From Syntrophus gentianae (GTDB lineage Bacteria > Desulfobacterota > Syntrophia > Syntrophales > Syntrophaceae): a stretch of 43,643 bases of DNA. Both the position numbers and the translations under genes were made by a program. Location of the stretch: the NCBI RefSeq assembly GCF_900109885.1, contig NZ_FOBS01000027.1, forward strand, positions 1 through 43,643, written 5' to 3'. Below the pieces are notes generated by a model. It did not search any database and was not told where the DNA came from. It saw only the letters and a list, made by a program, of their open reading frames with translations. This document shows, one piece after another, positions 392 to 17,784 of the stretch (positions are counted from its first letter, which is position 1; the number at the start of each line of letters is the position of its first letter).

Positions 392-1392
392 AGATTACGG
401 AATCTTTGGCCCAGGAAATCAATGTCCGACAGGCTTGTGCCGCTTTGACCGTTTCTTCTGCGGGTTTCTACCACTGGCGGAATCAGCAGAAGAAAGGCCC
501 TAAGGAAAACCTGCGCCCGGCGCCTCCCCTGGCCCTGTCTGAAGAAGAGGAAAAGACCATTTTGGGGATTCTTCATGAAGAACGATTTGTAGATATGGCG
601 CCTCCGGAGATTTACAGCAAATTGCTCGATGAAGGCATTTATCTTTGCTCAGTGCGGACCATGTACCGGATTCTGGAAAAACATGATGAAGTGAGGGAGC
701 GACGAAACCAACTTGCCCATCCTCAATATCAGAAGCCTGAGTTGCTTGCGGAGAGATCCAATGAAATCTGGACCTGGGATATTACCAAGCTCAAAGGACC
801 GGTGAAGTGGACGTATTTTTATCTCTATGTGATTCTCGATATCTTCAGCCGGTATGTGGTGGGATGGATGGTCGCCCACCGGGAACTGGCCGCGCTGGCT
901 GGGAAACTGATCAATCAGACTTATGAAAAACAGAATATTCAACCGGAACAATTGACGATCCATGCCGACCGGGGTTCCAGCATGACTTCCAAAACAGTGG
1001 CGTTCCTGCTCTCCGATCTGGGAATCACCAAAAGTCATTCCCGGCCGCATGTGAGCAATGACAACCCTTATTCGGAAGCCCAGTTCAAAACCCTGAAATA
1101 CCGTCCCACGTTTCCGCAGCGGTTTGGCTCCATTGAAGATGCCCGGTCATTCTGTCAGGACTTCTTCCGCTGGTATAAACGGGAACATCACCATTCCGGC
1201 ATTGGGTTCCTGACTCCCGAAGATGTCCATTATGGACGAGCGGAGGAGATTATCAAAGAGCGGCAGGCTGTTCTCGATGCAGCCTATAAACAACATCCGG
1301 AACGGTTCAAGTGGGTCATGCCAAGACCAATGGCTTTGCCCTCAGCCGTCTGGATCAATAAGCCGGCTCCAACTGATCCGGCGCAACACTAA
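388..1392 (+). CDS. IS3-family transposase OrfB (DDE integrase core)
   Basis: This is the catalytic half of the IS3 transposase. An N-terminal HTH_21-like segment (about residues 45-105) precedes an rve integrase core. The acidic triad is visible as D131 (WTWDITKL), D194 (IHADRGSS) and E230 (PYSEAQFK), giving the DX35E spacing expected of IS3. At 334 residues it is slightly longer than many OrfB proteins because of a proline-rich tail. The frame is intact, so the element could be active. It starts by ATGA overlap with orfA and can also be made as an OrfAB fusion. Confidence 0.92.
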   Translation: MKITESLAQEINVRQACAALTVSSAGFYHWRNQQKKGPKENLRPAPPLALSEEEEKTILGILHEERFVDMAPPEIYSKLLDEGIYLCSVRTMYRILEKHDEVRERRNQLAHPQYQKPELLAERSNEIWTWDITKLKGPVKWTYFYLYVILDIFSRYVVGWMVAHRELAALAGKLINQTYEKQNIQPEQLTIHADRGSSMTSKTVAFLLSDLGITKSHSRPHVSNDNPYSEAQFKTLKYRPTFPQRFGSIEDARSFCQDFFRWYKREHHHSGIGFLTPEDVHYGRAEEIIKERQAVLDAAYKQHPERFKWVMPRPMALPSAVWINKPAPTDPAQH

Positions 1393-3512: not shown

Positions 3513-5018
3513 CTATTTTTTCCTTAAATTATATTTAACCATCTTGATCTGCAGGCCTTTTCTGCTGAAACCGAGACGTTTGGCGGTGTGGGTGATGTTT
3601 CCACTGCATTCTTCCAGGATCTTTTCGATCATTCTTTTTTCCACTTCCGCCTTCTGGCTTTCGATGACATTTCGATACAGGCCCGATTTTTCTCCTTCAT
3701 TGGCAAAGTCGTCATTAGGGCGGCCCTCCCCAGCGCCCTTCTTTTCACTGCGGGCCATCAGGACAAGGCGTTCCGTAAAATTTTCCATTTCCCGCAAAAG
3801 GTATTTTTCAAACTGATCTTTTTCTTCACCTTCATGATCCGGATTTTCTTGATCCGCTGCGTTTCTGATTTCATCGGGAATATCGTCCAGGGAAATTTTT
3901 TCGCCCTTGGTCAGCAACACGATTCGCTCGATCAAGTTTCCAAGTTCCCGGATATTGCCGGGCCATCTGTATTTCTTGAAACAATCGAGGACCTGCGGGG
4001 CTATTTCCTGGATATTCTTGTTGAGCTTGGAGTTGAATCGATCCAGAAAATAAAGGGTCAGGGACGGAATATCCTCCTTCCTCTCCCTAAGTGGCGGCAT
4101 TTTGATGGGGACGACATTTAACCGATAATAGAGATCTTCCCGAAAATTTCCCTCTTTTATTTCTTTCAGCAGGTCTCGATTGGTGGCCGCGATGATTCTT
4201 ACATCCACCTGAAGGGTCTTTACCCCGCCGACTCTTTCAAAGGTTTGATCCTGGAGGATCTGTAGGAGTTTGACCTGCATGTCCTTGGGGAGTTCGCCTA
4301 TTTCATCAAGGAAGATCGTTCCTTCGTGGGCCAGCTCAAATTTCCCCGGTTTCGATGAGGCCGCCCCGGTAAAGGCGCCCTTTTCATATCCGAACAATTC
4401 CGACTCGATAAGACTTTCGGAGATGGCCCCGCAGTTGATTTTAATGAAGGCGTTATCCTTTCTGGGACTTCCCCGGTGAATGGCATGGGCAATCAGTTCT
4501 TTACCCGTTCCGGTTTCACCGGTAATCAGGATGGTCGTCCTGGTCTCGGCAATCTGTTCTATCGTCGAGTAGATCTCCCGGATTTTCTCACTGCACCCGA
4601 CAATGCCGTATCGGTCGATTTCACCCGCTCCCAGAATGACCTTGTCGGAATTCTTCATTCGAGTCCGAAGGGCTTTATCAATGACGCTGATTAATTCATA
4701 CTGATCAAAAGGCTTGGTGATATAATCAAAAGCCCCTTTTTTCAAGGCATCCACTGCTGTTTCGATGGTTCCATGGGCCGTAATGATAATGACCGGCGTT
4801 TCGGGATATTTTGCGGTAACACTCTCCAAAAGCCCCAGACCGTTGAGTCTGGGCATCTTCAAATCCGTAACCAGAACATCAAAACTTTCTTTTTCGAGCT
4901 GGGCCAGCGCGTCCAGGCCATCTATGGCTTCGGATACCGAATACCCTTTTTTCTTCAGCATCGCATGAAGCACGACACGCATGTTCAGCTCGTCGTCGAC
5001 AATTAAAACTTTTTTCAT
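3513..5018 (-). CDS. NtrC-family sigma-54-dependent response regulator
   Basis: This 501-residue enhancer-binding protein activates sigma-54 RNA polymerase when phosphorylated. The receiver domain (1-120) has acidic D8/D9, phospho-acceptor D52, T80 and K102. The AAA+ domain shows Walker A GETGTGKE (167-174), the sigma-54 contact loop GAFTGA (214-219) and Walker B IFLDE (235-239). A Fis-type helix-turn-helix lies at about 464-497. Between AAA+ and HTH is an unusually long charged linker (about 385-460). It follows its probable kinase by 29 bases in the same operon. The divergent lipid cluster has a matching -24/-12 promoter, so that cluster is the likely target (inference). Confidence 0.93.
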   Translation of the reverse strand: MKKVLIVDDELNMRVVLHAMLKKKGYSVSEAIDGLDALAQLEKESFDVLVTDLKMPRLNGLGLLESVTAKYPETPVIIITAHGTIETAVDALKKGAFDYITKPFDQYELISVIDKALRTRMKNSDKVILGAGEIDRYGIVGCSEKIREIYSTIEQIAETRTTILITGETGTGKELIAHAIHRGSPRKDNAFIKINCGAISESLIESELFGYEKGAFTGAASSKPGKFELAHEGTIFLDEIGELPKDMQVKLLQILQDQTFERVGGVKTLQVDVRIIAATNRDLLKEIKEGNFREDLYYRLNVVPIKMPPLRERKEDIPSLTLYFLDRFNSKLNKNIQEIAPQVLDCFKKYRWPGNIRELGNLIERIVLLTKGEKISLDDIPDEIRNAADQENPDHEGEEKDQFEKYLLREMENFTERLVLMARSEKKGAGEGRPNDDFANEGEKSGLYRNVIESQKAEVEKRMIEKILEECSGNITHTAKRLGFSRKGLQIKMVKYNLRKK

Positions 5019-6644: not shown

Positions 6645-6756
6645 GCGAACTGTCTTATACACTTTTTCCTTCGTCCCGTCTCTCGCCGTTTTAGGCACAT
6701 TTTTCATCTTACTGTTTTTACTCTATATTTTTAACTGCATTTTTAATATAGCCCTC

Positions 6757-6773
6757 TGGCACACCCCGTGCTT
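6757..6773 (+). promoter_or_regulatory. Sigma-54 (-24/-12) promoter of the lipid cluster
   Basis: TGGCACACCCCGTGCTT matches the sigma-54 consensus TGGCAC-N5-TTGCT with one mismatch (GTGC for TTGC). The invariant GG (6758-6759) and GC (6770-6771) are separated by exactly 10 bases. Transcription would start near 6783, leaving a leader of about 28 bases before the ATG at 6811. Confidence 0.65.
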
Positions 6774-6810
6774 TTAGAAGCTCGATTTCACCAATACTGT
6801 GGAGTTTACC

Positions 6811-7755
6811 ATGATTTCAGAAGACTCTATCGCTGTCGTATTTCCCGGTCAAGGATCTCAGCGGCCGGGCATGGGGAAAGATTTTTCCGATAGCATTCCC
6901 CTTTCCAAGCAGACCTTTGAAGAGGCATCCGACGCCTTGGGCTGGGACGTTGCCTCTTTATGCTTTTCCGAAGATGAACGACTCAATTTAACGGAATTTA
7001 CCCAGCCCTGCATTCTTGCCACCGAGATCGCCATGTTCCGTGGTCTACAGGCCCTTTACCCGTTCTCTCCTTCCCTTTACGGTGGACACAGCCTTGGTGA
7101 ATTTTCGGCCCTCGTGGCCGCCGGCGTTTTCCCTTTCTCGGAGACGCTGCGCATCGTTCACGAAAGAGGCCGTCTGATGCAGAATGCCGTTCCCGTTGGC
7201 GTCGGAGGAATGGCCGCCGTTATCTTGAACGATCTGGATGCTTCGCAGATCCGCAGTTTATTGTCCGATCTTCCCGTCGATGTCGCCAATGAAAACTCTC
7301 TCTCCCAGGTCGTCATCAGCGGGGAGGCAGAGGCACTGCCGATCGCAGAGAAACGCTTATCCGAGCAGTTCACCGATCCCTCATTCCGGGTGGTTCCGCT
7401 GCGTGTCAGCGCCCCCTTTCACAGCCGGTTCATGAAGACCATCGGACAACCTTTTGAACAGGTCCTGCGCACCTCCGCGCCTTCCTGGCAACCCGGAAAG
7501 GCGGCTGCCGTGACGTCCAACTATACGGGAACCTATCATCTTCCCGAGGTTGATGCTATTTTAAATACCCTTGTTTTACAACTCAGTTCCGCGGTTCGCT
7601 GGATCGATAACATGAAAGCCCTGTCTGCCAGAGCGAAAACGATCTATGAAGTGGGACCCGGCAGGCCGCTTCGGGACTTTTTCAAGACCATCGACGTCAC
7701 TTGCTCTTCCATCACGGCCCTGTCCGCGGCGCAACGTCTCTTTCGGAATGCCTGA
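6811..7755 (+). CDS. FabD-like malonyl/acyl-CoA:ACP transacylase
   Basis: The enzyme loads a malonyl (or other acyl) group from CoA onto the cluster's acyl carrier protein. In 314 residues it shows the N-terminal FPGQGSQ motif (11-17), the nucleophile S94 in GHSLGE, the arginine R119 typical of malonyl-specific enzymes and the catalytic H204 in APFHS. The ATG at 6811 is preferred over the in-frame GTG at 6799, which overlaps the ribosome-binding site GTGGAG. It is the first gene behind the sigma-54 promoter. No second copy is seen in the housekeeping fatty acid locus of this window, so it could also serve primary synthesis. Confidence 0.9.
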   Translation: MISEDSIAVVFPGQGSQRPGMGKDFSDSIPLSKQTFEEASDALGWDVASLCFSEDERLNLTEFTQPCILATEIAMFRGLQALYPFSPSLYGGHSLGEFSALVAAGVFPFSETLRIVHERGRLMQNAVPVGVGGMAAVILNDLDASQIRSLLSDLPVDVANENSLSQVVISGEAEALPIAEKRLSEQFTDPSFRVVPLRVSAPFHSRFMKTIGQPFEQVLRTSAPSWQPGKAAAVTSNYTGTYHLPEVDAILNTLVLQLSSAVRWIDNMKALSARAKTIYEVGPGRPLRDFFKTIDVTCSSITALSAAQRLFRNA

Positions 7756-7811
7756 CGAGAATTAAACTTTTTCAACCCTTCACTACCTTAAGAAAGGATA
7801 AGGATTAGAAT

Positions 7812-9008
7812 ATGGATCTAAGCCTGAACGAAACTCAGCAAATGTATGTGAATACGGTCTCGCGCTTTGTTAAGAACGAGATTCTTCCCCATGCCCTGGA
7901 GATGGACCGGGGGCATGTCTTTCCTGTAGATATGCTGAAAAAAATCTGGGAAATGGGCATCATGAATATCTCCATCCCGGAGTCCATAAAAGGTTATAAC
8001 GTCGATGTGGTTTCCGCCGCCTTGATCATCCGGGAATTGTCCTATGGCGACTCCGGCGTCGCAACCTCCGCCATGTGCAATGACCTGGCGAACGTCGTCA
8101 TCGCCCAGCACGGATCGCAAGCTCAACAGGAAGCCTATCTGAAGCCCTTCGTCGATGCCCCGCTGGTCTCGGCTTTCTGCCTGACCGAACCGGCCGCCGG
8201 CTCGGACAACCTCTCCATGACCTCCTTCATTGCAAAACGCGACGACGGCAAATATGTTCTCAACGGATCGAAGTGCTTCATCACCAACGCCTCCTATGCC
8301 TCGCAATTCACCGTTTTCTGCAAGGTGGGAAAACCTTCCAGCCAGCTGATGGCCTGTGCGATCATCCCGGCCATCCCCGTTCCTCTGGACTCGGCCTCCC
8401 CCATCAAGGGTGTCCGGGAAATTCAGCTTCCCACTGGAGGGAAGATTATCGTGGGGAAACCCGAAGACAAACTGGGACAATGTCTGTCCAACACGGCCAG
8501 CGTGACCTTCGAGGACGTTATTCTCGAACCCGGCCAGATTATCGGCGACCGCCGGCTGGGCTTCAAATACGTCATCGATGTCCTTGATTTCGCCCGTCCC
8601 ATGATCGCCGCGATCGGCGTTGGCGTGGCAAAAAGGGCCTTTGACTTGACCTTGTCCTATGCGAAGGAGCGCAAGCTCTTCGGCCAGCGGCTCTGTGACA
8701 TTCCCGTCGCCCGGCAGACCCTCGTATCGATGTGGAAAAAGGTTGAACTTTCCGAATTGGCTCTGTTAAAATCCGCCCTCAAAATTATGGAAGACGCCCC
8801 CGATAAGGGGATTTATTCGTCCCTTGCAAAGAATTGCGCTGCAGAAGCCGCTCTTTTCTGCTGCAATGAGGGATTGCACCTTCACGGCGGCTACGGGTTC
8901 ACCAACGAGTACGAGATATCCAAACTCGTTCGTGACGTCCATATTATTGATATTTACGAAGGGACCCGCGAGGTTCAGGATATGATCATCGGGCGGGAGC
9001 TTGTATAA
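7812..9008 (+). CDS. Acyl-CoA (or acyl-ACP) dehydrogenase
   Basis: This 398-residue flavoprotein has the full acyl-CoA dehydrogenase fold: N-terminal helical domain, FCLTEPAAGSD flavin/substrate motif (about 137-147), beta domain and C-terminal helices. The catalytic base is the glutamate of IYEGTREVQ near the C terminus, as in short- and medium-chain enzymes, so it should be active. In this cluster it may introduce an alpha,beta double bond, oxidise a starter unit or act in reverse as an enoyl reductase, since no FabI/FabK/FabL is present. The choice cannot be made from sequence. It begins 56 bases after the transacylase. Confidence 0.92.
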   Translation: MDLSLNETQQMYVNTVSRFVKNEILPHALEMDRGHVFPVDMLKKIWEMGIMNISIPESIKGYNVDVVSAALIIRELSYGDSGVATSAMCNDLANVVIAQHGSQAQQEAYLKPFVDAPLVSAFCLTEPAAGSDNLSMTSFIAKRDDGKYVLNGSKCFITNASYASQFTVFCKVGKPSSQLMACAIIPAIPVPLDSASPIKGVREIQLPTGGKIIVGKPEDKLGQCLSNTASVTFEDVILEPGQIIGDRRLGFKYVIDVLDFARPMIAAIGVGVAKRAFDLTLSYAKERKLFGQRLCDIPVARQTLVSMWKKVELSELALLKSALKIMEDAPDKGIYSSLAKNCAAEAALFCCNEGLHLHGGYGFTNEYEISKLVRDVHIIDIYEGTREVQDMIIGRELV

Positions 9009-9011
9009 AGG

Positions 9012-9992
9012 ATGTTATATCTTCACGGCTTGGGTCATTTTCATCCTGAAAACGTCATCAGCAATTCCTTCCTGGAAGAACTGGACATCGGGACGAATGA
9101 AGAGTGGATCATGGATCGGGTAGGCATTATGACCCGCAGGACCGTCCTTTCCCTCGATTATATCCGGTCGACAAAAAACTCTGATCCGCGGGCGGCCCTC
9201 GAGGCATCAGAATACAACAACGCCCAGATCGGCGCCTTCTCGGCCCAGATGGCCCTGGAACGAGCCGGCCTCTCTACAGCAGACATCGGCATGGTCATCT
9301 CGGGAAGCTCCGCCTCGGATCATCTGACGCCGGTGGAAGCATCGACGATTGCCGCAGAGCTGAACATTGATGTACCCTGTCTGGATGTGAATTCGGCCTG
9401 CAGCAGCTTCGGCATGGACGTCCATGTCCTGAGCATGATGAAACCGGAGGCCCTCCCCCCCTTTGTGCTGATCGTCAACCCGGAAACCATGACGAAAAGC
9501 GTGGATTATTCGGATCGCAGCATCGCCGTTCTTTTCGGGGATGGAAGCGCCGCAGCGGTGGTTTCCAGTCGGGAACCCTCCCGGTCCGTTTTTCTTTCCA
9601 GTTTCTGTGATTCGAAACCCACGGCCTGGGAAAAGGTCGTGATTCCCCGGATGGGGTATTTTCGTCAGGATGGGCATGCGGTTCAGGGGTTCGCCATCCG
9701 CAAGACAACGGATTCGATCCGCACCCTGCAATCCGTCTATCCGGTCAACCGCTTTGTCGGTCATCAGGCAAATCTCGGGATGCTCCGCACCGCCTGCGAG
9801 CGCACCGGCATTGTCGAGGATCAGCACTGGCATAATGTGGAACATTTCGGCAACACGGGCTGCTCCGGCGCTCCCGCCGTTCTGAGTCAACATTGGCAGG
9901 ACCTGACGCCCGGTGATCATGTGGCGGTCTGCGTTGTGGGAGGCGGCCTCACATGGGTGCATACCCTGTTAAAAATTGAGGATTCATTATGA
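9012..9992 (+). CDS. 3-oxoacyl-ACP synthase III (FabH-like)
   Basis: This thiolase-fold enzyme probably primes chain synthesis by condensing an acyl-CoA with malonyl-ACP. The Cys-His-Asn triad is complete: C130 in NSACSSFG, H251 in GHQANLG and N281 in FGNTGCSG. Its length of 326 residues is normal for FabH. The N-terminal region lacks the usual FabH start motif, so it belongs to a divergent KAS III group whose starter unit is unknown. It starts three bases after the dehydrogenase stop and overlaps the next gene by ATGA, implying coupled translation. Confidence 0.88.
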   Translation: MLYLHGLGHFHPENVISNSFLEELDIGTNEEWIMDRVGIMTRRTVLSLDYIRSTKNSDPRAALEASEYNNAQIGAFSAQMALERAGLSTADIGMVISGSSASDHLTPVEASTIAAELNIDVPCLDVNSACSSFGMDVHVLSMMKPEALPPFVLIVNPETMTKSVDYSDRSIAVLFGDGSAAAVVSSREPSRSVFLSSFCDSKPTAWEKVVIPRMGYFRQDGHAVQGFAIRKTTDSIRTLQSVYPVNRFVGHQANLGMLRTACERTGIVEDQHWHNVEHFGNTGCSGAPAVLSQHWQDLTPGDHVAVCVVGGGLTWVHTLLKIEDSL

Positions 9993-10579
9993 CTTATGAG
10001 GAGTTTCGCGAACGCGGCAGCTTCAGCCTTGAAGATCTGCTGGCTTTCGCTTACGGCAATCTCGTGGAAAATCGTCCCGAAGGCTTTGAAGCCCGCCTTC
10101 CGGCACCGCCCTTTCTCATGCTGGATCGCATCCTGACGATCACCCACGAAGGTCGACAGGGCCGCATTGTAGCGGAACAGGATATTCGCCTGGATGCGTG
10201 GTATTTTCAGTGTCATTTCTCCGGAGATCCTATCCAGCCGGGATGCCTCTGCGTCGATGCCGTCTGGCAGTTGCTCGGTTTTTATTGCGTCTGGCGCGGG
10301 GCTTTAGGCGCCGGCAGAGCGCTCGGCTGCCAAAGCGTTTCCTTCAACGGCCAGATTCGGCCGTATAACCGTTGCGTTCGCTACGAAGTGGATATTCGCC
10401 GCTTTTCCCAGTTGAAAGATTCCGGGGCCAGCGTCGTCATCGGCGATGCGAAAATCTTCGTCGACAATGAATTGATCACGGAAATTACGAGGGCCCAATC
10501 CGGTGTTTTCAGCGGCATCGTTTACCCGGATTATCCAAAGCACTCCCACAATTCGGTGGGAGGAATCATTAGGAGTTAA
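9989..10579 (+). CDS. FabA-type 3-hydroxyacyl-ACP dehydratase/isomerase
   Basis: This hotdog-fold enzyme resembles E. coli FabA rather than FabZ. It shares APPFLMLDRI near residue 39, the block WYFQCHFSGDPIQPGC with catalytic H76, D90 as the partner acid, and the following WQLLGFY stretch. FabA enzymes dehydrate 3-hydroxyacyl-ACP and can isomerise trans-2 to cis-3 double bonds. The 196 residues include a short C-terminal extension. A separate FabZ-type gene lies two genes downstream, so the cluster has two dehydratases of different type. Isomerase activity is inferred from the family only. Confidence 0.88.
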   Translation: MTYEEFRERGSFSLEDLLAFAYGNLVENRPEGFEARLPAPPFLMLDRILTITHEGRQGRIVAEQDIRLDAWYFQCHFSGDPIQPGCLCVDAVWQLLGFYCVWRGALGAGRALGCQSVSFNGQIRPYNRCVRYEVDIRRFSQLKDSGASVVIGDAKIFVDNELITEITRAQSGVFSGIVYPDYPKHSHNSVGGIIRS

Positions 10580-10581
10580 CC

Positions 10582-11316
10582 ATGAGTTCAGACAAACCAG
10601 TGGCCATAGTGACAGGAGGCGGTACGGGAATTGGAGCCGCTTGTTCGAAAGTTCTTGCCCGTGATGGTTTCCGGGTGGGGATCAATTATATCGATATCGT
10701 CGAGGACTCGGCAAAAGCCGTTCTCGCGCAGATTGAAGACGGCTTTCTTCTCAAAGCGGACCTCACGGATGCGGACCAGATTGAATCCATGCTTGCGGAA
10801 ATCAAGGAAAAGGCCGGCCGTGTCGATGTGCTCCTCAATGCCGCCGGGATCTCCATCAACAAGGACATCAACAGCATGACGCTGGAGGATTTTGACTTGC
10901 AGCGGGCCATTGTCAGGGGAAGCTGGTATCTGACGAAACGGATTCTCCGTCTTTTCATGCTCCGGAAAAACAGCGGCCGCATTATCAACATTTCCAGTGT
11001 GGTCGGCCATTCCGGCAATAGCGGACAGATTCCCTACACGATGGAAAAAGCCGCATTGGACGCCTTCACAAAGTCGCTCTGCAAGGAACTGGCAGGGAGA
11101 AACATCCTGGTGAATTCCGTTGCGCCGGGATTCATTGACACCCCGATGACCCAGAATCTGCCCGAGGAAGTTAAAAAGCGCATTTTAGACAGTATTCCCC
11201 TGGGACGTCTCGGCGACCCCGAGGAAATTGCCGATGTGGTTTCCTTTCTGGCCTGCCGGGCTTCCTATATCTCAGGTACGGTGATTCATGTAAACGGAGG
11301 CCTTTATGGTGGTTGA
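10582..11316 (+). CDS. 3-oxoacyl-ACP reductase (FabG-like SDR)
   Basis: This NADPH-dependent short-chain dehydrogenase should reduce the 3-oxo group of the growing chain. The cofactor motif TGGGTGIG is at 11-18, NAAG at 86-89, and the catalytic S139, Y152 and K156 are all present. The length of 244 residues is normal. AGGAG precedes the ATG, and the 3' end overlaps the FabZ-type gene by 11 bases. It is the only ketoreductase in the window. Confidence 0.92.
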   Translation: MSSDKPVAIVTGGGTGIGAACSKVLARDGFRVGINYIDIVEDSAKAVLAQIEDGFLLKADLTDADQIESMLAEIKEKAGRVDVLLNAAGISINKDINSMTLEDFDLQRAIVRGSWYLTKRILRLFMLRKNSGRIINISSVVGHSGNSGQIPYTMEKAALDAFTKSLCKELAGRNILVNSVAPGFIDTPMTQNLPEEVKKRILDSIPLGRLGDPEEIADVVSFLACRASYISGTVIHVNGGLYGG

Positions 11317-11785
11317 TCAGGTGACGAAGGACCTCGTTCTGAACGCGGTTCCTCAGCAATACCCCTTTCGGTTCATCGATGAGATCATCGAACTCGACGA
11401 GAATCACATCGTGGGAGCCTACCGTTATCGTGAGGATGAATATTTTTATAAGGGGCACTTTCCGGATCGTCCGATTACCCCGGGAGTTATTCTTATCGAA
11501 ACCATGGCCCAGACCGGCGTCGTGGCCTTCGGACTCTATCTGACGATGCAGCAGAGGCATAATTCTCTTGAAGAGACCAGACAATTGACCACCCTTTTTA
11601 CGTTTGTAGAAAGTGTAGAATTCAACAATATTGTATCTCCCGGTGAACGGGTGATCATCCGCGGTGAAAAAATTTATTTTCGGAGAGGAAGCCTGAAAAC
11701 AAAGGTGAGCATGGAACGGGAAAACGGTGATAATGTCTGTTTTGGTGTGCTAGCCGGGGCGGGGGTTATGTTAAATGAAGCGTAG
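11306..11785 (+). CDS. FabZ-like 3-hydroxyacyl-ACP dehydratase
   Basis: This single-hotdog dehydratase of 159 residues carries YPFRFIDEI near the N terminus and the active-site block GHFPDRPITPGV with H51 and E65, the catalytic pair of FabZ. It differs from the neighbouring FabA-type enzyme, which has Asp instead of Glu. The ATG at 11306 sits behind ACGGAGG inside the end of the ketoreductase gene. Its own end overlaps the ketosynthase by 11 bases. It should dehydrate 3-hydroxyacyl-ACP without isomerisation. Confidence 0.9.
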   Translation: MVVDQVTKDLVLNAVPQQYPFRFIDEIIELDENHIVGAYRYREDEYFYKGHFPDRPITPGVILIETMAQTGVVAFGLYLTMQQRHNSLEETRQLTTLFTFVESVEFNNIVSPGERVIIRGEKIYFRRGSLKTKVSMERENGDNVCFGVLAGAGVMLNEA

Positions 11786-13052
11786 AGTCGTTATTACAGG
11801 AATGGGTGTCATTGCACCCAACGGTCATGGTTTAGAGGAATATGAAGCGGCCCTTCGCGAAGGCCGATCCGGCATCCGCTATATTCCGGAGTTGAAGGAG
11901 CTCAATTTTGCCTGCCAGGTCGGTGGAATCCCTCAAGGTGTTGAGGCGTTGCGCGAAAGTTATTTCGTCCCCGAACAACTGGTTTCGATGAATGAGAACA
12001 TCGGCTATGCGGCGATCTCCGCCATTGATGCCTGGAAGGATGCGGGACTCACCGTTCCTTCTTTCGATTCCGACGAGGTGGATTGGGATTCAGGGATCAT
12101 TGTCGGTTCCGGCATCGGGGGCATGGATACGATTGCCAATGTCGTGGTCCCCATGGTCAATGCCGGTAAAGTGAAGCGGATGGGCAGCAGCATCGTCGAA
12201 CAGGTCATGAACAGCGGAACCAGCGCCCGTGTCGGCGGCCTCCTGGCCCTCGGGAATCAGGTAACCTCCAATTCCTCGGCATGCAGCACCGGCAATGAAG
12301 CCATCTTTGAAGCGATGATGCGGATTCGCAATGGCTTGGCCAAGCGGATGCTGGCCGGTGGCACGGAAGGAGCTTCACCCCACATCTGGGCAGGCTTCGA
12401 TGCCATGCGGGTGCTCTCCAAGAAATTTAATGACAATCCCGAACAGGCATCCCGTCCGCTGAGCGCCTCGGCCGCCGGATTTGTTCCCGGCTCCGGGGGG
12501 GCCCTTCTTCTCCTGGAAGACCTGGAAACGGCTCAGGCCCGTGGCGCCCGCATTTATGCGGAATTGCTTGGAGGACACGTCAATTGCGGCGGACATCGAA
12601 TGGGAGGCTCCATGACGGCTCCCAATCCGGAAGGTGTCAAGAGGTGCATCCGCGCGGCTATTGCCGATGCAGCGATTTCCGCACAGGACATTGAGGCCAT
12701 CAACGGGCACCTCACGGCGACATTCGCTGATCCCTACGAGGTGAAGAACTGGACCGAGGCGCTGGAGCGGGGTCCGGAGACTTTTCCCTACATCCAATCC
12801 ACGAAATCCATGATCGGCCATTGTCTCGGTGCGGCGGGCGCCGTTGAATGCGTAGCCGTCGTGTTGGAGCTTTACAAGGGATTTCTCCATCCCTCCGTCA
12901 ACAGCTCGGATGTCCATCCGGATATTGCCGCTTTTTCCAAAAGCATTCCTCAGCAAGCCCTGGAATGCCCGGATCTGAAAATTATCGCCAAAGCCGGTTT
13001 CGGATTTGGCGATGTGAACAGTTGCTTGATTTTCAAGAAATGGGAAGAATAG
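11775..13052 (+). CDS. 3-oxoacyl-ACP synthase II-like ketosynthase
   Basis: This 425-residue elongating ketosynthase of the KAS I/II family has a complete Cys-His-His triad: C170 in SSACSTGNE, H312 in INGHLTATFAD and H349 in GHCLGAAGAVE. The motif around the first histidine departs from the usual NAHGTSTPLND, indicating a specialised clade. It differs clearly from the housekeeping FabF at 36446-37687. With the FabH-like enzyme it gives the cluster its own priming and elongation steps. Confidence 0.9.
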   Translation: MKRRVVITGMGVIAPNGHGLEEYEAALREGRSGIRYIPELKELNFACQVGGIPQGVEALRESYFVPEQLVSMNENIGYAAISAIDAWKDAGLTVPSFDSDEVDWDSGIIVGSGIGGMDTIANVVVPMVNAGKVKRMGSSIVEQVMNSGTSARVGGLLALGNQVTSNSSACSTGNEAIFEAMMRIRNGLAKRMLAGGTEGASPHIWAGFDAMRVLSKKFNDNPEQASRPLSASAAGFVPGSGGALLLLEDLETAQARGARIYAELLGGHVNCGGHRMGGSMTAPNPEGVKRCIRAAIADAAISAQDIEAINGHLTATFADPYEVKNWTEALERGPETFPYIQSTKSMIGHCLGAAGAVECVAVVLELYKGFLHPSVNSSDVHPDIAAFSKSIPQQALECPDLKIIAKAGFGFGDVNSCLIFKKWEE

Positions 13053-13091
13053 AATAAAAAATTAGAAATATCACTAATAAAGGAGTATAAA

Positions 13092-13340
13092 ATGGACGAA
13101 AAAAAGATTTTTGACGAGTTGATCAACATCCTGAGACTTTATGCAAAAGACCCTGCTCTTCTGGAGACAGCCACAAAGGATACGCATATTCTCAACGATC
13201 TCAAGGTCAACTCCGCACGGCTTGTGGACGTGATCATCAAATGTGAGGATGTCTTTGGAATCGAAATTGATGATGACGATGCCGACAAAATCCGGACCAT
13301 CGGAAATGCCATTGAAGTGGTTCAAAGCAAATTGTCCTAA
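13092..13340 (+). CDS. Acyl carrier protein, atypical
   Basis: An 82-residue acidic helical protein with the ACP pattern. The predicted phosphopantetheine serine is S41 in DLKVNSARLVD, where canonical ACPs have DSL. The change of the preceding Asp to Asn and the following Leu to Ala would alter recognition by a standard holo-ACP synthase, fitting the dedicated phosphopantetheinyl transferase encoded two genes downstream. AAAGGAG precedes the ATG. It would hold chains for all of the upstream enzymes. The housekeeping ACP at 37782-38024 keeps the normal ADSLD motif. Confidence 0.88.
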   Translation: MDEKKIFDELINILRLYAKDPALLETATKDTHILNDLKVNSARLVDVIIKCEDVFGIEIDDDDADKIRTIGNAIEVVQSKLS

Positions 13341-13350
13341 GGTTTTCTTC

Positions 13351-14172
13351 ATGAGCGAAACGGAAAAGAGTGCGCTTCATCTGCAATATTTTCTCGGAAG
13401 GATTGCTATCTTTATTCTGGGGCCGCTGATCTATCTTACGATACGGCTTGCCGGCTATCGTGTCCGGGATATTCGCAAGATTCGCCATAAATGCCACGAG
13501 CTCTTCAAAATCCATGAAGGGCCGTGGATCATTTGTGCAAATCATCTGACGATGATCGATTCCGCGATTCTGGCTTATGTCATTGCCCCGGTTCGCCGCT
13601 ACGTGTTTAATTACAAGATCCTCCCCTGGAACGTTCCGGAACGGGCCAATTTCCAGCGCAATCTCTTCCTCACGGTTCTCTGTTATCTGTCGAAATGCAT
13701 TCCCATCAGTCGCGGGGGTGATCGCCGGGAGGTCAAGTCCACACTGGAACAGTGTCTGAGTGTATTAAAGAGCGAACAGAATGTTCTCATTTTTCCGGAA
13801 GGTGGCCGTTCCCGGGTCGGACATGTGGACACGGAGAATTTCTCCTACGGGATCGGTCAATTGATCGAATCCTGCGAGGAATGCAAAGTGCTGTGCATCT
13901 ATCTCCGGGGAGATGGTCAGGAAACGTACAGCAATCTGCCCCGCTGGGGGGAGAAGTTTTCCGTGCGCATCGACGTCATTGAACCTGCCCCCACGGAGTT
14001 GACCGGTCGCCGGGCACATCGTCACTACGCAGCACAGTGCATTCAGCAGCTTGCCCTGATGGAGGAACAGCATTTTGCCTCACGTCGGCAACGACATCGT
14101 GGATCTGACACAATCCACTGCCAGAAAGAAGAGCAGGAATATTCGCTTTCTGAACCGCGTCTTCACGCCTGA
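13351..14172 (+). CDS. PlsC-like lysophospholipid/glycerol acyltransferase
   Basis: This 273-residue membrane-associated protein carries the LPLAT signatures N64-H65-x4-D70 (ANHLTMIDS) and FPEGGRSR (148-155). An N-terminal hydrophobic helix (about 15-33) should anchor it. It likely transfers the completed acyl chain from ACP to a lipid or glycerol acceptor; the acceptor is unknown. The ATG at 13351 follows the ACP stop by 10 bases. Its last 98 bases overlap the phosphopantetheinyl transferase in another frame, giving a basic tail (SRRQRHRGSD). Confidence 0.87.
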   Translation: MSETEKSALHLQYFLGRIAIFILGPLIYLTIRLAGYRVRDIRKIRHKCHELFKIHEGPWIICANHLTMIDSAILAYVIAPVRRYVFNYKILPWNVPERANFQRNLFLTVLCYLSKCIPISRGGDRREVKSTLEQCLSVLKSEQNVLIFPEGGRSRVGHVDTENFSYGIGQLIESCEECKVLCIYLRGDGQETYSNLPRWGEKFSVRIDVIEPAPTELTGRRAHRHYAAQCIQQLALMEEQHFASRRQRHRGSDTIHCQKEEQEYSLSEPRLHA

Positions 14173-14761
14173 GGAACAAAGTTTCATCCTGTCCTCACCG
14201 TTCCCCGATCTGAGACTCTGGTCCTGCTGGGCTGCGAAGGAAGCGGCTTATAAAGCCATCAGTAAGGCATACCCTGATATTCCCGCAATACCGAAGCTCT
14301 ACCCCGTCTCATTGGATTCCGGAAACTGCGGAAGTGACCTGAATAACTCTCCGAAGTTTCAAAGATCCCGCTTTCCTCGTCTATGCGCGGGTTTTGTAAT
14401 GACACCCGGAGGGAAGTGCTGGATTCAAATTGAATATTCCCATACCTACCTTCACTGTCTTGCCTTTACCGAAGCTCCGGATACGCTGAATTTCTCCCGA
14501 CATGTCCATTATCTTTATTCCTCTCTTCAGGATGTCCCCTCTCCCGAGGCCGAAGCGGTCCGGCTTGCAGCAAGGCTCCATCTTGCCGGACTGCTTTGCG
14601 AGAATTTCGAAGATCTGGAGATCTCCCGGCAGCAGAGAGGATCTTCACCGGCACCGCCCCGGGTCTTTTGCCGGGGCCAACGCCTGGATGTTGATATCAG
14701 CCTGAGCCACGACGGATTCTTTCTCGCCTGTTCCTGTCTCCTGCCCCCTCCCTCATTTTAG
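14075..14761 (+). CDS. 4'-phosphopantetheinyl transferase
   Basis: The enzyme converts apo-ACP to holo-ACP. In 228 residues it shows GNDIVD (5-10), with D7 and D10 as probable magnesium ligands, and the WAAKEAAYK block (52-60), the two diagnostic motifs of the AcpS/Sfp superfamily. The C-terminal part (VDISLSHDGFFLAC) repeats the VSxSH-type motif of two-lobed Sfp/HetI-like enzymes. Translation begins at TTG 14075, behind GGAGG, 98 bases inside the acyltransferase gene. It most likely serves the atypical ACP. Confidence 0.88.
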   Translation: MPHVGNDIVDLTQSTARKKSRNIRFLNRVFTPEEQSFILSSPFPDLRLWSCWAAKEAAYKAISKAYPDIPAIPKLYPVSLDSGNCGSDLNNSPKFQRSRFPRLCAGFVMTPGGKCWIQIEYSHTYLHCLAFTEAPDTLNFSRHVHYLYSSLQDVPSPEAEAVRLAARLHLAGLLCENFEDLEISRQQRGSSPAPPRVFCRGQRLDVDISLSHDGFFLACSCLLPPPSF

Positions 14762-14890
14762 TTTGCACGGCAGATTTTGGGATTTGCACTCCTTGTCTTC
14801 CTATGATAGTTTTTTATCTCACTGCATGTTCGATTGATGGAAGAAAGAAGACGAAGTTCATATCAAGGCACGCTGGATTGCGGAAGTTAA

Positions 14891-15676
14891 ATGGTCACCT
14901 TTATTGAAGGCATAGGCATAAGGACGTTAAAGGTCTGCCGTTCCGCATTCAATACACTTTTTTTCGCCTGGCGGGCAATTGTTCATCTCCTTGATCGTAG
15001 AACTTATAACAAGGCCACTCAACTGGTCATTATAATACAGTTATATTTTACGGCTGTTCAGATATTGCCCCTGTTCATTTATATTTCCGCTCTGATGGGC
15101 CTCTTAATGATGGGGATCGTCCTTGACTCCATCAAGCAACTCGGTATGACGGGATATCTGGGAAATATCCTGATGGGCTTTATCTTCACCGAGGTTTGCC
15201 CCTTTATGACGGTTCTGCTGCTGGCATTGCGCTCCGGAGCGGCAATCAACACGGAAGTGGCGGTTATGAAGGTCAGCAAGGAATTGGATGCCTTGAGTGT
15301 CTTCAACATCGACGCCTTCGATTATATCGTTGTCCCTAGAATTGTAAGCGGGATCATTTCCGTTGTTCTTCTCAACGGCATTTTTACCCTTGTGCTTCTG
15401 GCCAGCGGCGCCCTGTTCTCACGGATGATTTTCGGGCTGGGGTTCGACGCCTATCTCCATATTTTGGTCACTTCCGCTGAATTTTCGGACCTGGTGATCC
15501 TGATCCTGAAATGTGCGACCTTCGGGTTCTTTATCACCTTGATTCCAATCCATTATGGATTGACGGCATCGAATGAATTATCCAGCATCCCCATAGTCGT
15601 TTTGAACGGAATGAATAATGTCTTTATAGCCATCATCATCATCGAGGTCCTATCATTACTCCTAAGCTCCATTTAA
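14891..15676 (+). CDS. mlaE: MlaE-family lipid ABC transporter permease
   Basis: This 261-residue integral membrane protein matches the MlaE/YrbE family: an N-terminal amphipathic segment, five or so hydrophobic helices, the loop LALRSGAAINTEVAVMKVS (about residues 113-131) and the segment IPIHYGLTASNE. In MCE systems the permease dimer works with an ATPase and a hexameric MlaD to move lipids between inner membrane and periplasm. A 129-base gap separates it from the acyl-chain genes, but the direction and packing suggest one functional unit. GCGGAAG precedes the ATG. Confidence 0.9.
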   Translation: MVTFIEGIGIRTLKVCRSAFNTLFFAWRAIVHLLDRRTYNKATQLVIIIQLYFTAVQILPLFIYISALMGLLMMGIVLDSIKQLGMTGYLGNILMGFIFTEVCPFMTVLLLALRSGAAINTEVAVMKVSKELDALSVFNIDAFDYIVVPRIVSGIISVVLLNGIFTLVLLASGALFSRMIFGLGFDAYLHILVTSAEFSDLVILILKCATFGFFITLIPIHYGLTASNELSSIPIVVLNGMNNVFIAIIIIEVLSLLLSSI

Positions 15677-15759
15677 TATTATTTCAAGATGAGGATCGTC
15701 TTGCCGAGACCCTGTCGGGGCTGAAGGAAAGGCATCAGCGGAACCTGGGGCTTGTTTCC

Positions 15760-16143
15760 ATGGACATCCCTTTGATTTCCAACTTGAATGTATGGCAGAA
15801 TATTGCTCTAATACGGTTTTACCATTTCAATGAAAGCAGATTACCAGCGAGGAAAAGGGTACTGGGTCTTCTCAATCGTTTCCAGAAGATGGAAATTGCG
15901 GACTTGCGAATCGCGGCCTTGGACCATCGGGAGCGTTTTCTTGTCAAGCTGCTCCGGGCGGCGATGGTTCAGGATGCGCTTCTTGTGATTGATCGTCCTT
16001 TCCGGCTTGTTCCTGATCTCCCCGATGCGGAAATGATCGAAGACAGCCTGGCGCAGATTGATGAACTTTACACCTCCTGCCAGATTTTTGATTATGCATG
16101 GAATCGAAACAAGTATAGGATAAAAGATGTTTCGGAATATTGA
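15760..16143 (+). CDS. Degenerate MlaF-like ABC ATPase domain lacking catalytic motifs
   Basis: The protein aligns by eye with the C-terminal two thirds of MlaF. SNLNVWQNIAL corresponds to the post-Q-loop block. LDHRERFLVKLLRAAM aligns without gaps to the LSGG signature segment, and VIDRP (76-80) to the Walker B FDEP. There is no Walker A, the signature LSGG is LDHR, the catalytic Glu is Arg, and no H-loop is visible. The frame stays open upstream to 15619, so translation could begin at a non-ATG codon such as ATT 15655 inside mlaE. No Walker A is encoded there either. The frame is intact and overlaps mlaD by 17 bases, so it looks like a maintained pseudo-ATPase rather than a decayed gene. 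Confidence 0.7.
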   Translation: MDIPLISNLNVWQNIALIRFYHFNESRLPARKRVLGLLNRFQKMEIADLRIAALDHRERFLVKLLRAAMVQDALLVIDRPFRLVPDLPDAEMIEDSLAQIDELYTSCQIFDYAWNRNKYRIKDVSEY

Positions 16144-17080
16144 ATACAAGGTCGGTCTGTTCATTCTGATCACTTCCGCCCTGATCATAACGTCGATCGG
16201 GTATGTGGCCTATAAGAAAGAGGTTTTTTCCCGGGTGGACACTTATACCCTGTCTTCCTTTTCCGGTGAGGATCTGACGGTAGGCATGCCGGTTCTCCTG
16301 TCGGGCTACAAAATCGGCAGAGTGGATGCCCTCGAACTCGGCAGTGACGGGCGCATCCTGATTCGGATCAAAATCCCTCACAGGCATGCCAAATGGCTTC
16401 GTAAGGACAGTGTATTCATCATTAACAAACCGCTTTTCGGCGATCCGCGTATCGTTTTATCCGTCGGGAAAATGAGCAGCCCCCCCCTGTCCACAGAAGC
16501 GGTCAAGGAAGTTGTGGTCGCCAACGATATCAATGAAACCATCAAGAAGCTGGAACCGGTCGTGGAACGACTGAACCGGATCACCATCAATATCGAAACC
16601 CTGACGGCAAATCTTGCCGATCCCAAGGGGGACGTAAATCAAATCTTACGCCATACGGAAACACTGACCGAACGGCTTTCCCGTACCGAATCCCTCCTTG
16701 ATCTTGCCGTGGGAAACCCGGATACGGTTTCTGCGGTGCAGGGAGCCCTCCAGAATACGGAAGAAATCACCACGGATATGTCCCGTATCTTGAAAACGGT
16801 GGATGCCATGGCGGTAAAATCTGATGAAGCCCTCTACGGGAAAAATGGGATTTTCCCGTCCTTGAGAACGCTCCTGGTGGATCTTGTTGGCAAACTGGTC
16901 AAACTGGATCAGTTCATTATTCACCTGAACAATGTGGGCGCCAACGTGGACGCATCCACGAAGGATCTTTCGGTACTGCGCAGGGATATTGACGAAACGG
17001 TCAGCACCCTCAACGGTCTGGTCAAGGAAATAGACCGGAAAATACCCTTCAAAAAGGACCCGCAGATAAAACTGCCATGA
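16127..17080 (+). CDS. mlaD: MlaD-like MCE-domain lipid-binding protein
   Basis: This 317-residue protein has an N-terminal membrane helix (about 9-29), an MCE domain (about 38-115, with VGMPVLLSGYKIGRVD and a GDPRIVLSVG strand) and a long helical C terminus (about 135-310) with repeated heptads. MCE proteins form periplasmic hexamers that bind lipid at a hydrophobic pore; the long helix may extend toward the outer membrane. It follows the degenerate ATPase with a 17-base overlap and precedes the lipoprotein by an ATGA overlap. Confidence 0.9.
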   Translation: MFRNIEYKVGLFILITSALIITSIGYVAYKKEVFSRVDTYTLSSFSGEDLTVGMPVLLSGYKIGRVDALELGSDGRILIRIKIPHRHAKWLRKDSVFIINKPLFGDPRIVLSVGKMSSPPLSTEAVKEVVVANDINETIKKLEPVVERLNRITINIETLTANLADPKGDVNQILRHTETLTERLSRTESLLDLAVGNPDTVSAVQGALQNTEEITTDMSRILKTVDAMAVKSDEALYGKNGIFPSLRTLLVDLVGKLVKLDQFIIHLNNVGANVDASTKDLSVLRRDIDETVSTLNGLVKEIDRKIPFKKDPQIKLP

Positions 17081-17784
17081 AAAGATATCTTGGTCTCATT
17101 TGTTGCTGCCTGCTTCTTCTATGCGGGTGCGCCGCGCAATCCATACCGGAATGGAGAACGGACAGTTTTAATTCTCTGGAAAAATATAAGGACGAGTTCC
17201 TGGCGGGAAAAGAGCACCTGGCGGAAGTCCACTTTCAAAAGGCCGTCGATGAAATCAAGAGCAGCGGAGATCTGACCCTGCTGATGACGGCTCACCTCAC
17301 GCGATCGGCCCTGCAGATTGCCGTCCTTGAAACGCCCGACTTCAGGAATTATCTTGAAATCGCAAAGGCCGATCCGGCCGATGCCGATGAGCAAAAAAAC
17401 TATTATCTGTTATTAGAAGGTAAATTCGATTCGCTTCAGAAGGATAAGCTTCCAAAGCCCTATCAGGACCTTGCCGAGGTTCTGGAAAAAGGCGATCAGA
17501 AGGAAATATCCCAGGTGGTAGGTGAAATTCAGGACGACCTGTCCCGATTGATTGCCACCGGCCTTGCCGTTCGCAATGGCAGGGAAGATGAGGCCCTCCT
17601 GACCGGTGCGGTCGATCTGGCCTCCTCCCACGGCTGGCGGAAGCCCCTCTTGATTTATCTTAATCGGTTGAAATCCTATTATCGGGAAAATCAGAACTGG
17701 GAAAAAGAGGAGAAAATCCGCCTGAAGATGGAATTGCTCACTCCCCACTCAGGCATGCGGGGCAAGACGGGTCCAGCTTGTTGA
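17077..17784 (+). CDS. Lipoprotein of the MCE transport operon
   Basis: A 235-residue protein with a lipoprotein signal peptide: basic start, hydrophobic core and a lipobox LLCGC with the lipidated C18. The mature part is helical and rich in charged residues, with a weak TPR-like character (AEVHFQKAVDEIK). No known enzyme motif is visible. It overlaps mlaD by ATGA and is the last gene of the run. An outer-membrane partner for the MlaD pore is the natural guess, but this is inference. Its final 36 bases overlap the convergent pdxT gene. Confidence 0.75.
   Translation: MKRYLGLICCCLLLLCGCAAQSIPEWRTDSFNSLEKYKDEFLAGKEHLAEVHFQKAVDEIKSSGDLTLLMTAHLTRSALQIAVLETPDFRNYLEIAKADPADADEQKNYYLLLEGKFDSLQKDKLPKPYQDLAEVLEKGDQKEISQVVGEIQDDLSRLIATGLAVRNGREDEALLTGAVDLASSHGWRKPLLIYLNRLKSYYRENQNWEKEEKIRLKMELLTPHSGMRGKTGPAC

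What the first reader, a model, noticed from the sequence alone, without database searches (positions are those of the whole stretch)
6811..17784. Self-contained acyl-chain synthesis plus MCE export system
Seen: fourteen co-directional genes with mostly overlapping or near-touching ends encode transacylase, acyl-CoA dehydrogenase, KAS III, FabA-type and FabZ-type dehydratases, ketoreductase, KAS II, ACP, LPLAT acyltransferase and phosphopantetheinyl transferase, followed by MlaE, a pseudo-ATPase, MlaD and a lipoprotein. Known: the parts belong to type II fatty acid synthesis and Mla/MCE lipid transport. Inferred: a dedicated pathway that makes an unusual acyl chain, attaches it to a lipid and moves it across the envelope. 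I know of no described system with this combination, though I could not search for one.
Basis: partly seen in the sequence, partly recalled or inferred. Interest (0 to 1): 0.78.

Follow-up and report, generated by a model that had tools for sequence, protein, structure and literature searches.

The report
Fatty-acid operon beside degenerate lipid transporter
In Syntrophus bacteria a self-contained fatty-acid-making operon, apparently the cell's main one, lies next to a separate lipid-transport cassette whose energy subunit has been reduced to a motor-less stump that seems to start at a very rare start codon; in most related bacteria examined the two parts are not found together.

Summary
The fourteen genes are real and correctly named; the window is from Syntrophus (order Syntrophales). 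The 'one make-and-export pathway' reading mostly fails. (1) The fatty-acid half (KAS II as marker) is in 128 of 155 Syntrophales genomes, the MCE half (pseudo-ATPase) in 87. Of 71 with both, they lie within 5 kb in 5 and 12 kb in 1. The MCE cassette has its own promoter-like box. (2) The fatty-acid half is probably not an extra pathway for an odd chain: it holds the genome's only FabD-type transacylase, its only strong KAS III and the two best FabA/FabZ dehydratases, while plsX-fabH-fabD-fabG are missing between rpmF and acpP-fabF. Its acyl-CoA dehydrogenase stands where related operons have a FabL-like enoyl reductase (30 against 9 of 41 loci, 2 with neither, none with both), so it is probably the enoyl reductase. 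A sigma-54 two-component pair stands upstream. (3) Most surprising is the 'pseudo-ATPase': a truncated ABC ATPase without the Walker A half or recognisable catalytic motifs, kept across the order, with no conserved standard start. In 80 of 80 readable loci an ATT (70) or ATC (10) stands in frame, 7 nt behind GAGG. What powers the transporter is open.

The parts
3513..5018 (-). NtrC-type response regulator (receiver, sigma-54 AAA+, Fis HTH)
   Evidence: Pfam; beside the fatty-acid operon in L028, L046, L138, L141, L145, L148, L164, L167 and, at about 38% identity, in L155-L157 and L161
5048..6565 (-). histidine kinase paired with the regulator; N-terminal half looks membrane-bound by eye
   Evidence: Pfam HisKA and HATPase_c
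6757..6772 (+). sigma-54 (-24/-12) promoter-like site TGGCACACCCCGTGCT, 54 bp before the ATG of the transacylase
   Evidence: 9 of 10 consensus bases; a site of 8-10 of 10 in 9 of 21 intergenic regions scanned
6811..7755 (+). malonyl-CoA:ACP transacylase (FabD-like), the only Acyl_transf_1 match in the genome
7812..9008 (+). acyl-CoA dehydrogenase family flavoprotein, proposed enoyl-thioester reductase
   Evidence: stands where non-Syntrophales operons have a FabL-like reductase
9012..9992 (+). KAS III (FabH-like), Cys-His-Asn triad seen in the sequence
9989..10579 (+). FabA-type dehydratase/isomerase
10582..11316 (+). 3-ketoacyl reductase (FabG-like, YxxxK)
11306..11785 (+). FabZ-type dehydratase
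11775..13052 (+). KAS II (FabF-like), Cys-His-His triad; order-wide marker
13092..13340 (+). acyl carrier protein with NSAR instead of the usual DSL around the carrier serine
13351..14172 (+). PlsC-like acyltransferase (NHLTMID and FPEG motifs)
   Evidence: start codon chosen by eye
14075..14761 (+). 4'-phosphopantetheinyl transferase
14762..14890 (+). 129-nt gap between the halves, with a promoter-like block around TTTGCAC...TATGATA shared by four Syntrophus genomes
14891..15676 (+). MlaE-type MCE permease
15644..15657 (+). GAGG ribosome-binding site and ATT start codon inside the end of mlaE
   Evidence: 80 of 80 readable loci
15655..16143 (+). truncated pseudo-ATPase: ABC domain without its N-terminal Walker A half
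16127..17080 (+). MlaD-type MCE protein with long C-terminal tail
17077..17784 (+). lipoprotein, last gene of the MCE cassette
   Evidence: lipobox by eye; conserved with the cassette; no Pfam match above cut-off, no NCBIfam family

Best explanation
Two independently conserved modules lie side by side in Syntrophus. Module A is a sigma-54-controlled, self-contained type II fatty-acid operon: FabD loads malonate, KAS III starts, KAS II elongates, KR, FabZ and FabA process the beta-carbon, an acyl-CoA-dehydrogenase-family flavoprotein does the enoyl reduction, and a PlsC-like enzyme passes the chain from the dedicated carrier protein to a lipid. In Syntrophus it seems to serve as the cell's core fatty-acid synthesis, the classic plsX-fabH-fabD-fabG block being absent from its usual place. 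Module B is an MCE lipid-transport cassette (MlaE, pseudo-ATPase, MlaD, lipoprotein) with its own promoter-like site; its ATPase gene is reduced to a stump without recognisable catalytic motifs, started at a conserved AUU codon, so the permease either works without ATP of its own or borrows an MlaF made elsewhere. Shown by sequence: gene content, separability, single FabD, reductase exchange, loss of ATPase motifs, fixed ATT/ATC. Inferred: enzyme activities, AUU initiation, separate transcription, direction of transport.
For: Separability: KAS II in 128 of 155 Syntrophales genomes, pseudo-ATPase in 87 of 155, both in 71, within 5 kb in 5. In 5 of 5 unlinked MCE loci annotated, FAH- and HtrA-type genes lie upstream, and in 2 of 5 pdxT-pdxS downstream (names confirmed by profile for L032 and L050); the window keeps the pdxT-pdxS-hisF side. 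Core role: one Acyl_transf_1 match in G000 and one in G003; one strong KAS III (57.6 bits; the next, 28.8, also passes the cut-off of 24); FabA family: the two cluster genes plus one 25.8-bit match, which is an ApeI-like dehydratase of another cluster; yceD, rpmF, acpP, fabF without plsX-fabH-fabD-fabG between them in this window (rpmF and acpP by eye). Reductase exchange: ACAD in 30, FabL-like reductase in 9, neither in 2 (partial contigs), both in 0 of 41 loci; that reductase's best NCBIfam match is FabL (113.9 bits, below its cut-off) and it has no orthologue in 155 Syntrophales genomes (109 have weak matches, best 58.5 bits). Sigma-54. MCE promoter-like box: 17 of 23 upstream regions against a mean of 3.0 and a maximum of 8 in 300 shuffles (motif chosen after seeing the sequences). 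Pseudo-ATPase: its profile aligns to the best-matching ABC ATPase only from residue 71 on, after Walker A; third codon positions differ two to three times as often as the others. ATT/ATC.
Against: In Syntrophus all fourteen genes point one way and no terminator-like site, and no sigma-70-type site by the generic scan, was found in the 129-nt gap, so one long transcript is possible. Proximity is not confined to one genus: adjacent in two families (f1, f12), 12 kb apart in one genome of f11, and in four f17 genomes the transacylase alone lies 12-14 kb from the pseudo-ATPase, so an old neighbourhood may have been lost rather than gained. Contig breaks hide some links. The reductase role of the ACAD rests on position alone. 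In 20 genomes another Acyl_transf_1 domain, some in large PKS-type frames, lies outside the cluster, so there the operon may be a second system with a special product. The genome holds 11 ketoacyl-synthase matches and further dehydratase-like genes in other clusters. No FabI, FabK, FabV, PlsX or FabG search by name was run in the genome.
Confidence: 0.74

Rival explanations
1. One reading: one dedicated pathway that makes a particular acyl chain, attaches it to a lipid and moves it across the envelope through the adjacent MCE system.
For: Same strand and order in four Syntrophus genomes (G001 and G002 cut at or inside the first genes by a contig end) and, without FabA/FabZ or cut by a contig end, in two of family f12; no terminator-like site in the gap; a PlsC-like enzyme and a lipid transporter are chemically compatible.
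Against: On other contigs in 64 and 185 kb apart in 1 of 71 genomes with both; MCE cassette has a promoter-like box in linked and unlinked settings; the cluster carries the only FabD-type protein of the genome, so it is unlikely to serve only a special lipid.
Confidence: 0.12
2. The pseudo-ATPase works as one half of a mixed pair with a true MlaF made from another locus, as a lopsided or regulatory nucleotide-binding unit, so transport is still driven by ATP.
For: The genome has two other MlaE loci, one beside an intact MlaF-like ATPase (best NCBIfam match MlaF, 205 bits, below its cut-off); a shared unlinked ATPase is known for mycobacterial Mce systems (recalled).
Against: The stump keeps neither the Walker A half nor recognisable catalytic residues and would leave most of the usual dimer face missing; no interaction evidence.
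Confidence: 0.4
3. The pseudo-ATPase is a decaying relic without function.
For: No catalytic motif left; very rare start codon; 37 of 92 good genomes of the order have no match at the threshold used.
Against: Found in 87 genomes, protein-level constraint at codon positions, invariant residues PLISN, N49, R101-A102, P115 across 26 rows, and start-site bases fixed in 80 of 80 loci.
Confidence: 0.08
4. The acyl-CoA dehydrogenase is not the enoyl reductase but puts a double bond into a finished chain, as acyl-ACP dehydrogenases such as MbtN do.
For: Family resemblance to dehydrogenases, including a 32.9-bit match to MbtN.
Against: Best named match is acryloyl-CoA reductase (243.8 bits, below its cut-off of 640); exchange with a FabL-like reductase without overlap.
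Confidence: 0.2

Closest known systems
Type II (dissociated) bacterial fatty acid synthesis, Fab enzymes
   Same: FabD, KAS III, KAS II, KR, FabA, FabZ, ACP in one operon, catalytic residues in place
   Different: Acyl-CoA-dehydrogenase-family enzyme where related operons have a FabL-like reductase, atypical NSAR carrier protein with its own PPTase and PlsC-like enzyme, sigma-54 two-component control
Mla phospholipid transport system (MlaFEDB-MlaC-MlaA)
   Same: MlaE permease and MlaD-type MCE protein in one cassette
   Different: MlaF replaced by a truncated protein without recognisable ATPase motifs, no MlaB, MlaC or MlaA in the cassette, a lipoprotein instead
Veillonella MlaEFD (PMC10665443, passages read)
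   Same: Minimal three-gene system with a long MlaD that may bridge the envelope
   Different: There MlaF closely resembles those of model diderms according to the passages read; here it is a stump
Pqi and Let systems of E. coli (PMC12436622, passages read)
   Same: MCE transport without an ATPase domain of its own; Pqi includes an outer-membrane lipoprotein (recalled)
   Different: Their permeases PqiA/LetA are not MlaE-type (recalled); no remnant of an ATPase
infC and pcnB of E. coli, AUU-started genes (PMC9410913, passages read)
   Same: AUU start codon
   Different: Unrelated genes; here the AUU lies inside the end of the upstream gene and is order-wide

Membership tests
Type II fatty acid synthesis | separate AT, KAS III, KAS II, KR, dehydratase and ACP of the Fab families | tested here: met
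   Pfam; NCBIfam cut-offs mostly not reached, FabA-type PRK05174 is
Type II fatty acid synthesis | catalytic residues of these enzymes | tested here: met
   read by eye in the translations (KAS III Cys/His/Asn, KAS II Cys/His/His, FabA His/Asp, FabZ His/Glu, KR Tyr-x3-Lys, AT GHSLGE); motif rules recalled
Type II fatty acid synthesis | dedicated enoyl-ACP reductase (FabI/K/L/V) | tested here: not met
   none inside the operon; ACAD instead. Elsewhere in the genome only a FabL-like query was run, giving a weak 46.6-bit match
Type II fatty acid synthesis | supplies bulk membrane acyl chains | tested here: inconclusive
   single FabD and one strong KAS III make it likely; no lipid data
Mla-type MCE ABC transporter | MlaE permease | tested here: met
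   Pfam 158.2 bits; NCBIfam MlaE family 113.9 bits, below its cut-off of 212.2
Mla-type MCE ABC transporter | MlaD MCE domain | tested here: met
   27.6 bits against a cut-off of 25.1
Mla-type MCE ABC transporter | MlaF ATPase with Walker A, signature, Walker B Glu and H-loop | tested here: not met
Mla-type MCE ABC transporter | MlaB, MlaC, MlaA partners in the cassette | tested here: not met
   cassette is four genes in the loci read; partners elsewhere not searched
PqiABC | PqiA permease and PqiC-family lipoprotein | tested here: not met
   permease is MlaE; lipoprotein has no matching family
Aryl polyene type gene clusters | KS pair with chain-length factor, MMPL exporter, LolA-like carrier (recalled) | tested here: not met
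   no such families among the fourteen genes
AUU-initiated gene | AUU codon with ribosome-binding site and no conserved alternative start | tested here: met
   (sequence level only; 70 of 80 loci ATT, 10 ATC)
AUU-initiated gene | initiation at that codon in the cell | not testable with these tools
   needs N-terminal peptides or reporters

The most novel reading that the evidence does not exclude
Syntrophales carry a distinct class of MCE lipid transporter in which the ATPase has shrunk to a motor-less subunit, made in small amounts from a conserved AUU (or AUC) start inside the permease gene, so that an ABC-type permease has become an ATP-independent or ATPase-sharing conduit for lipids in bacteria that live at very low energy yields.
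Probability: 0.45. Interest if true: 0.76.

Novelty: new variant of a known kind. Interest (0 to 1): 0.57.

Why it matters
If right, an MCE permease can lose the motor half of its ATPase and still be kept across a bacterial order, which bears on the open question of what drives lipid movement between membranes. A conserved AUU/AUC start outside infC and pcnB would be a rare natural test case for initiation-factor control. And a fatty-acid operon in which an acyl-CoA dehydrogenase stands in for the usual enoyl reductase, and which appears to have displaced the classic fabH-fabD-fabG block in Syntrophus, would be testable core metabolism in energy-limited syntrophs. The 'make and export one lipid' story, by contrast, should not be carried forward as it stands.

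Tried and rejected
Single make-and-export pathway: rejected as a conserved unit. Extra pathway for an unusual chain: made unlikely by the single FabD and one strong KAS III. ATPase gene mis-called because of a sequencing error: rejected, the truncated protein recurs in 87 of 155 genomes. Programmed frameshift from mlaE instead of an AUU start: a slippery X-XXY-YYZ heptamer stands in the overlap in 0 of 80 loci, and in 32 of 80 a stop codon lies within three codons before the ATT/ATC. ATT kept only because of the mlaE reading frame: unlikely, the mlaE codon holding its A ends in A in 80 of 80 loci (TCA in 74), while TCA is 10.4% of serine codons in these mlaE genes (the script looked for ATT/ATC behind GAGG, and the only loci that failed are two cut off before the start). 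Structure prediction of the pseudo-ATPase from three sequences failed (mean pLDDT 39.3), so no fold search was made. Pseudo-ATPase outside the order: of 395 phylum genomes 256 have some match, but only 13 of the 16 Syntrophales ones reach 190 bits; the next best is 52.2 bits in a 242-aa frame, taken as true ABC ATPases and not checked one by one. Literature: searches were seen as listings; none of the listed titles is about this operon, a pseudo-ATPase MCE system or an acyl-CoA dehydrogenase replacing an enoyl-ACP reductase; passages of three papers were read. The library holds only open-licence papers, so this is weak. Rows dropped: L015 (same place as L037) from the AUU count; L038 and L047 are cut off before the start; 8 of the 87 genomes with a pseudo-ATPase were not fetched, so the 80 loci come from 79 genomes; L041 (partial hit) and L033 (near copy of L030) were left out of the promoter-box count; the match list is cut short, so the tallies cover listed rows only.


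Full report
What is there. The window is contig 27 of a 3.7-Mb genome rated 99.99% complete, 1.76% contaminated. So the window is Syntrophus, order Syntrophales. G003 of the same genus is one contig of 3,179,300 bases, which I recall as the size of S. aciditrophicus SB.

The two halves are separate modules. The pseudo-ATPase search in 41 related genomes gave matches in 29, strong ones (83 bits or more) in 25. I fetched 27 loci from the 24 other genomes of these. The MlaE - pseudo-ATPase - MlaD - lipoprotein cassette is whole or cut by a contig or fetch end in them, but the fatty-acid operon stands with it in only 6 of 27: three Syntrophus loci, two of family f12 and one of f11 (L046), where the operon's first gene is about 6 kb off and points the other way. 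Of 16 cassette loci with more than 13 kb upstream, 3 have the operon there, 2 the transacylase alone, 11 no orthologue of an operon gene; weak hits of 23-32% identity to SDR, ACAD and kinase genes occur in some. Conversely, 12 of 12 operon loci outside Syntrophus with at least 8 kb from the PPTase start to the locus end show no MCE gene there (Syntrophales loci). Across the 155 Syntrophales genomes held, KAS II is in 128 (83 of 92 good ones) and the pseudo-ATPase in 87 (55 of 92). Seventy-one have both: same contig in 7, within 5 kb in 5, 12 kb in one, 185 kb in one. Contig breaks hide some links; G030 is such a case, its carrier protein, acyltransferase and PPTase lying next to mlaE at a contig end.

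Neighbours tell the same story. In 5 of 5 unlinked loci annotated, an FAH-type and an HtrA-type gene lie upstream of mlaE, and in L032 and L050 pdxT-pdxS lie downstream (the names were confirmed by profile for the upstream genes of L032 and the downstream ones of L050, the rest by eye). Syntrophus keeps pdxT-pdxS-hisF on the right but has the fatty-acid operon with its kinase and regulator on the left. The gap between the halves, 129 nt, is the widest in the set and holds a block shared by four Syntrophus genomes. A box of the form [TC][AG]TGNTA stands upstream of mlaE in 17 of 23 loci, linked or not, against a mean of 3.0 and a maximum of 8 in 300 shuffles; the pattern was chosen after looking at these sequences. 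The generic scan found no terminator-like and no sigma-70-type site in the gap, so read-through cannot be excluded.

The fatty-acid half looks like core metabolism in this genome. Acyl_transf_1 has one match, the cluster's. KAS III has one strong match, the cluster's, at 57.6 bits, one at 28.8 bits that also passes the cut-off, and three below it. The FabA family has the two cluster genes (134.5 and 57.3 bits) and one 25.8-bit match that belongs to an ApeI-like dehydratase of another cluster on contig 16. In the same window the usual yceD-rpmF-plsX-fabH-fabD-fabG-acpP-fabF order (recalled) is reduced to yceD, rpmF, acpP, fabF (rpmF and acpP by eye). Against this, the genome has 11 ketoacyl-synthase matches, some in other lipid- or polyketide-type clusters; none of these clusters holds a transacylase. 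Over the order, 25 genomes in the printed list, plus G000 and G003, have exactly one Acyl_transf_1 match and it is the cluster's; 20 have the cluster's and at least one more, sometimes in a large PKS-type frame; in 72 no listed match is within 12 kb of KAS II (list cut short, contig breaks not corrected). So the operon seems to be a second system in some families and the only one in others, Syntrophus among them.

Operon content varies. KAS III was not found in the operon in L137, L139, L154 and L173; FabA is missing in the Smithella-group loci L136, L137, L139, L144, L154; L031 lacks both FabA and FabZ.

The enoyl reductase. In 30 Syntrophales loci the operon has an acyl-CoA dehydrogenase near its start, behind the transacylase where that is present; in 9 loci from other Desulfobacterota, Marinicella and Elusimicrobia it has instead an SDR of about 311-337 residues; 2 partial contigs have neither and none has both (41 loci, at least one genome twice). 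The SDR's best NCBIfam match is the enoyl-ACP reductase FabL (113.9 and 110.7 bits, below its cut-off of 328; two of the nine tested). No orthologue of it was found in the 155 Syntrophales genomes: 109 have weak matches, best 58.5 bits. I infer that the acyl-CoA dehydrogenase is the operon's enoyl reductase. Its electron donor is unknown.

Regulation. A site with 9 of 10 bases of the sigma-54 consensus lies 54 bp before the transacylase. Sites with 8 to 10 of 10 lie 54-111 bp before the first gene in 9 of 21 intergenic regions scanned, with 10 of 10 in L140 and L142; 12 regions had none. In the whole window, both strands, 10 sites reach 8 and only this one 9. The divergent kinase and NtrC-type regulator recur beside the operon.

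The pseudo-ATPase. It is about 162 residues. A profile of 26 rows matches ABC ATPases of known structure; in the best match (8.3e-9) profile positions 21-119 align to chain residues 71-169, so the Walker A half is absent; MlaF of Pseudomonas and E. coli match at 4.6e-5 and 6e-4. Q-loop, signature, catalytic Glu (IDRP for DEP) and H-loop are not recognisable (by eye). Codon-position differences among four Syntrophus copies are 0.12-0.19 at positions 1 and 2 against 0.35-0.41 at position 3, so it is a maintained protein. In 395 genomes of the phylum only Syntrophales genomes, 13 of 16, reach 190 bits.

Its start. No ATG, GTG or TTG is conserved near its 5' end. In 80 of 80 readable loci from 79 genomes an in-frame ATT (70) or ATC (10) stands with GAGG starting 11 nt before it, within the last codons of mlaE; the overlap with mlaE is 22 nt in 72 of 80. 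The mlaE codon carrying the A of ATT ends in A in all 80, though TCA is only 10.4% of serine codons in these genes. A slippery heptamer was found in 0 of 80. In E. coli only infC and pcnB are said to start at AUU (PMC9410913, passages read). I therefore propose AUU initiation, probably coupled to the end of mlaE and giving low output. It is a sequence inference.

Mechanism, graded. Shown: gene content, modularity, single FabD, reductase exchange, loss of ATPase motifs, fixed ATT/ATC. Likely: core fatty-acid synthesis under sigma-54 control; AUU start. Open: energy source and direction of lipid transport; whether an unlinked MlaF (an intact one lies beside another MlaE in the genome) serves this permease.

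Known or new. Each half is a variant of a known kind. None of the listings I saw in the open-licence library describes either variant, which is a limited search. The combination itself is local to a few families.

Noticed in passing
L031 (G014), 6646-13800: In family f12 the operon lacks both FabA and FabZ although it keeps the other genes; where its dehydratase comes from is unclear.
   Followed up: no
L136 5089-6501, between transacylase and ACAD: A carboxyltransferase gene (pyruvate carboxylase subunit B type, 633 bits in NCBIfam) lies inside this Smithella operon, perhaps for malonyl supply; gaps of like size stand at the same place in some other Smithella-group loci.
   Followed up: partly
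L198 (G000 contig 16, 9000-28900): A second lipid-type cluster with several ketosynthases, two carrier proteins, an ApeI-like dehydratase, radical-SAM-like proteins, a polysaccharide deacetylase-like protein and a PlsY-like protein (the last ones by eye).
   Followed up: partly
L151 (Marinicella litoralis): A gammaproteobacterium holds the same kind of operon (KAS II 61% identical) with a FabL-like reductase, which points to horizontal transfer.
   Followed up: partly
L089, L090, L102, L110, L210, L212, L214, L216, L226, L230: Ten loci of family f14 have ATC in place of ATT as the proposed start of the pseudo-ATPase.
   Followed up: yes
window, between rpmF and acpP, about 38.0-38.3 kb: About 300-350 bp without a clear gene between rpmF and acpP, where plsX-fabH-fabD-fabG would be expected.
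   Followed up: partly
window 2-1392: Two overlapping genes of an IS3-like transposase (the second with rve integrase domain) at the contig edge, before the VKOR gene and the regulator pair.
   Followed up: no
window 41155-42693, - strand: A 512-aa open frame with no Pfam family.
   Followed up: no
G019, G035, G096, G098 (family f17): The transacylase lies apart from the rest of the operon, 12-14 kb from the pseudo-ATPase.
   Followed up: partly
L001 236-1480, - strand (G000 contig 2): An intact MlaF-like ATPase carries a C-terminal extension with a GGDEF-like match just below the cut-off (22.6 bits, cut-off 23.8).
   Followed up: no
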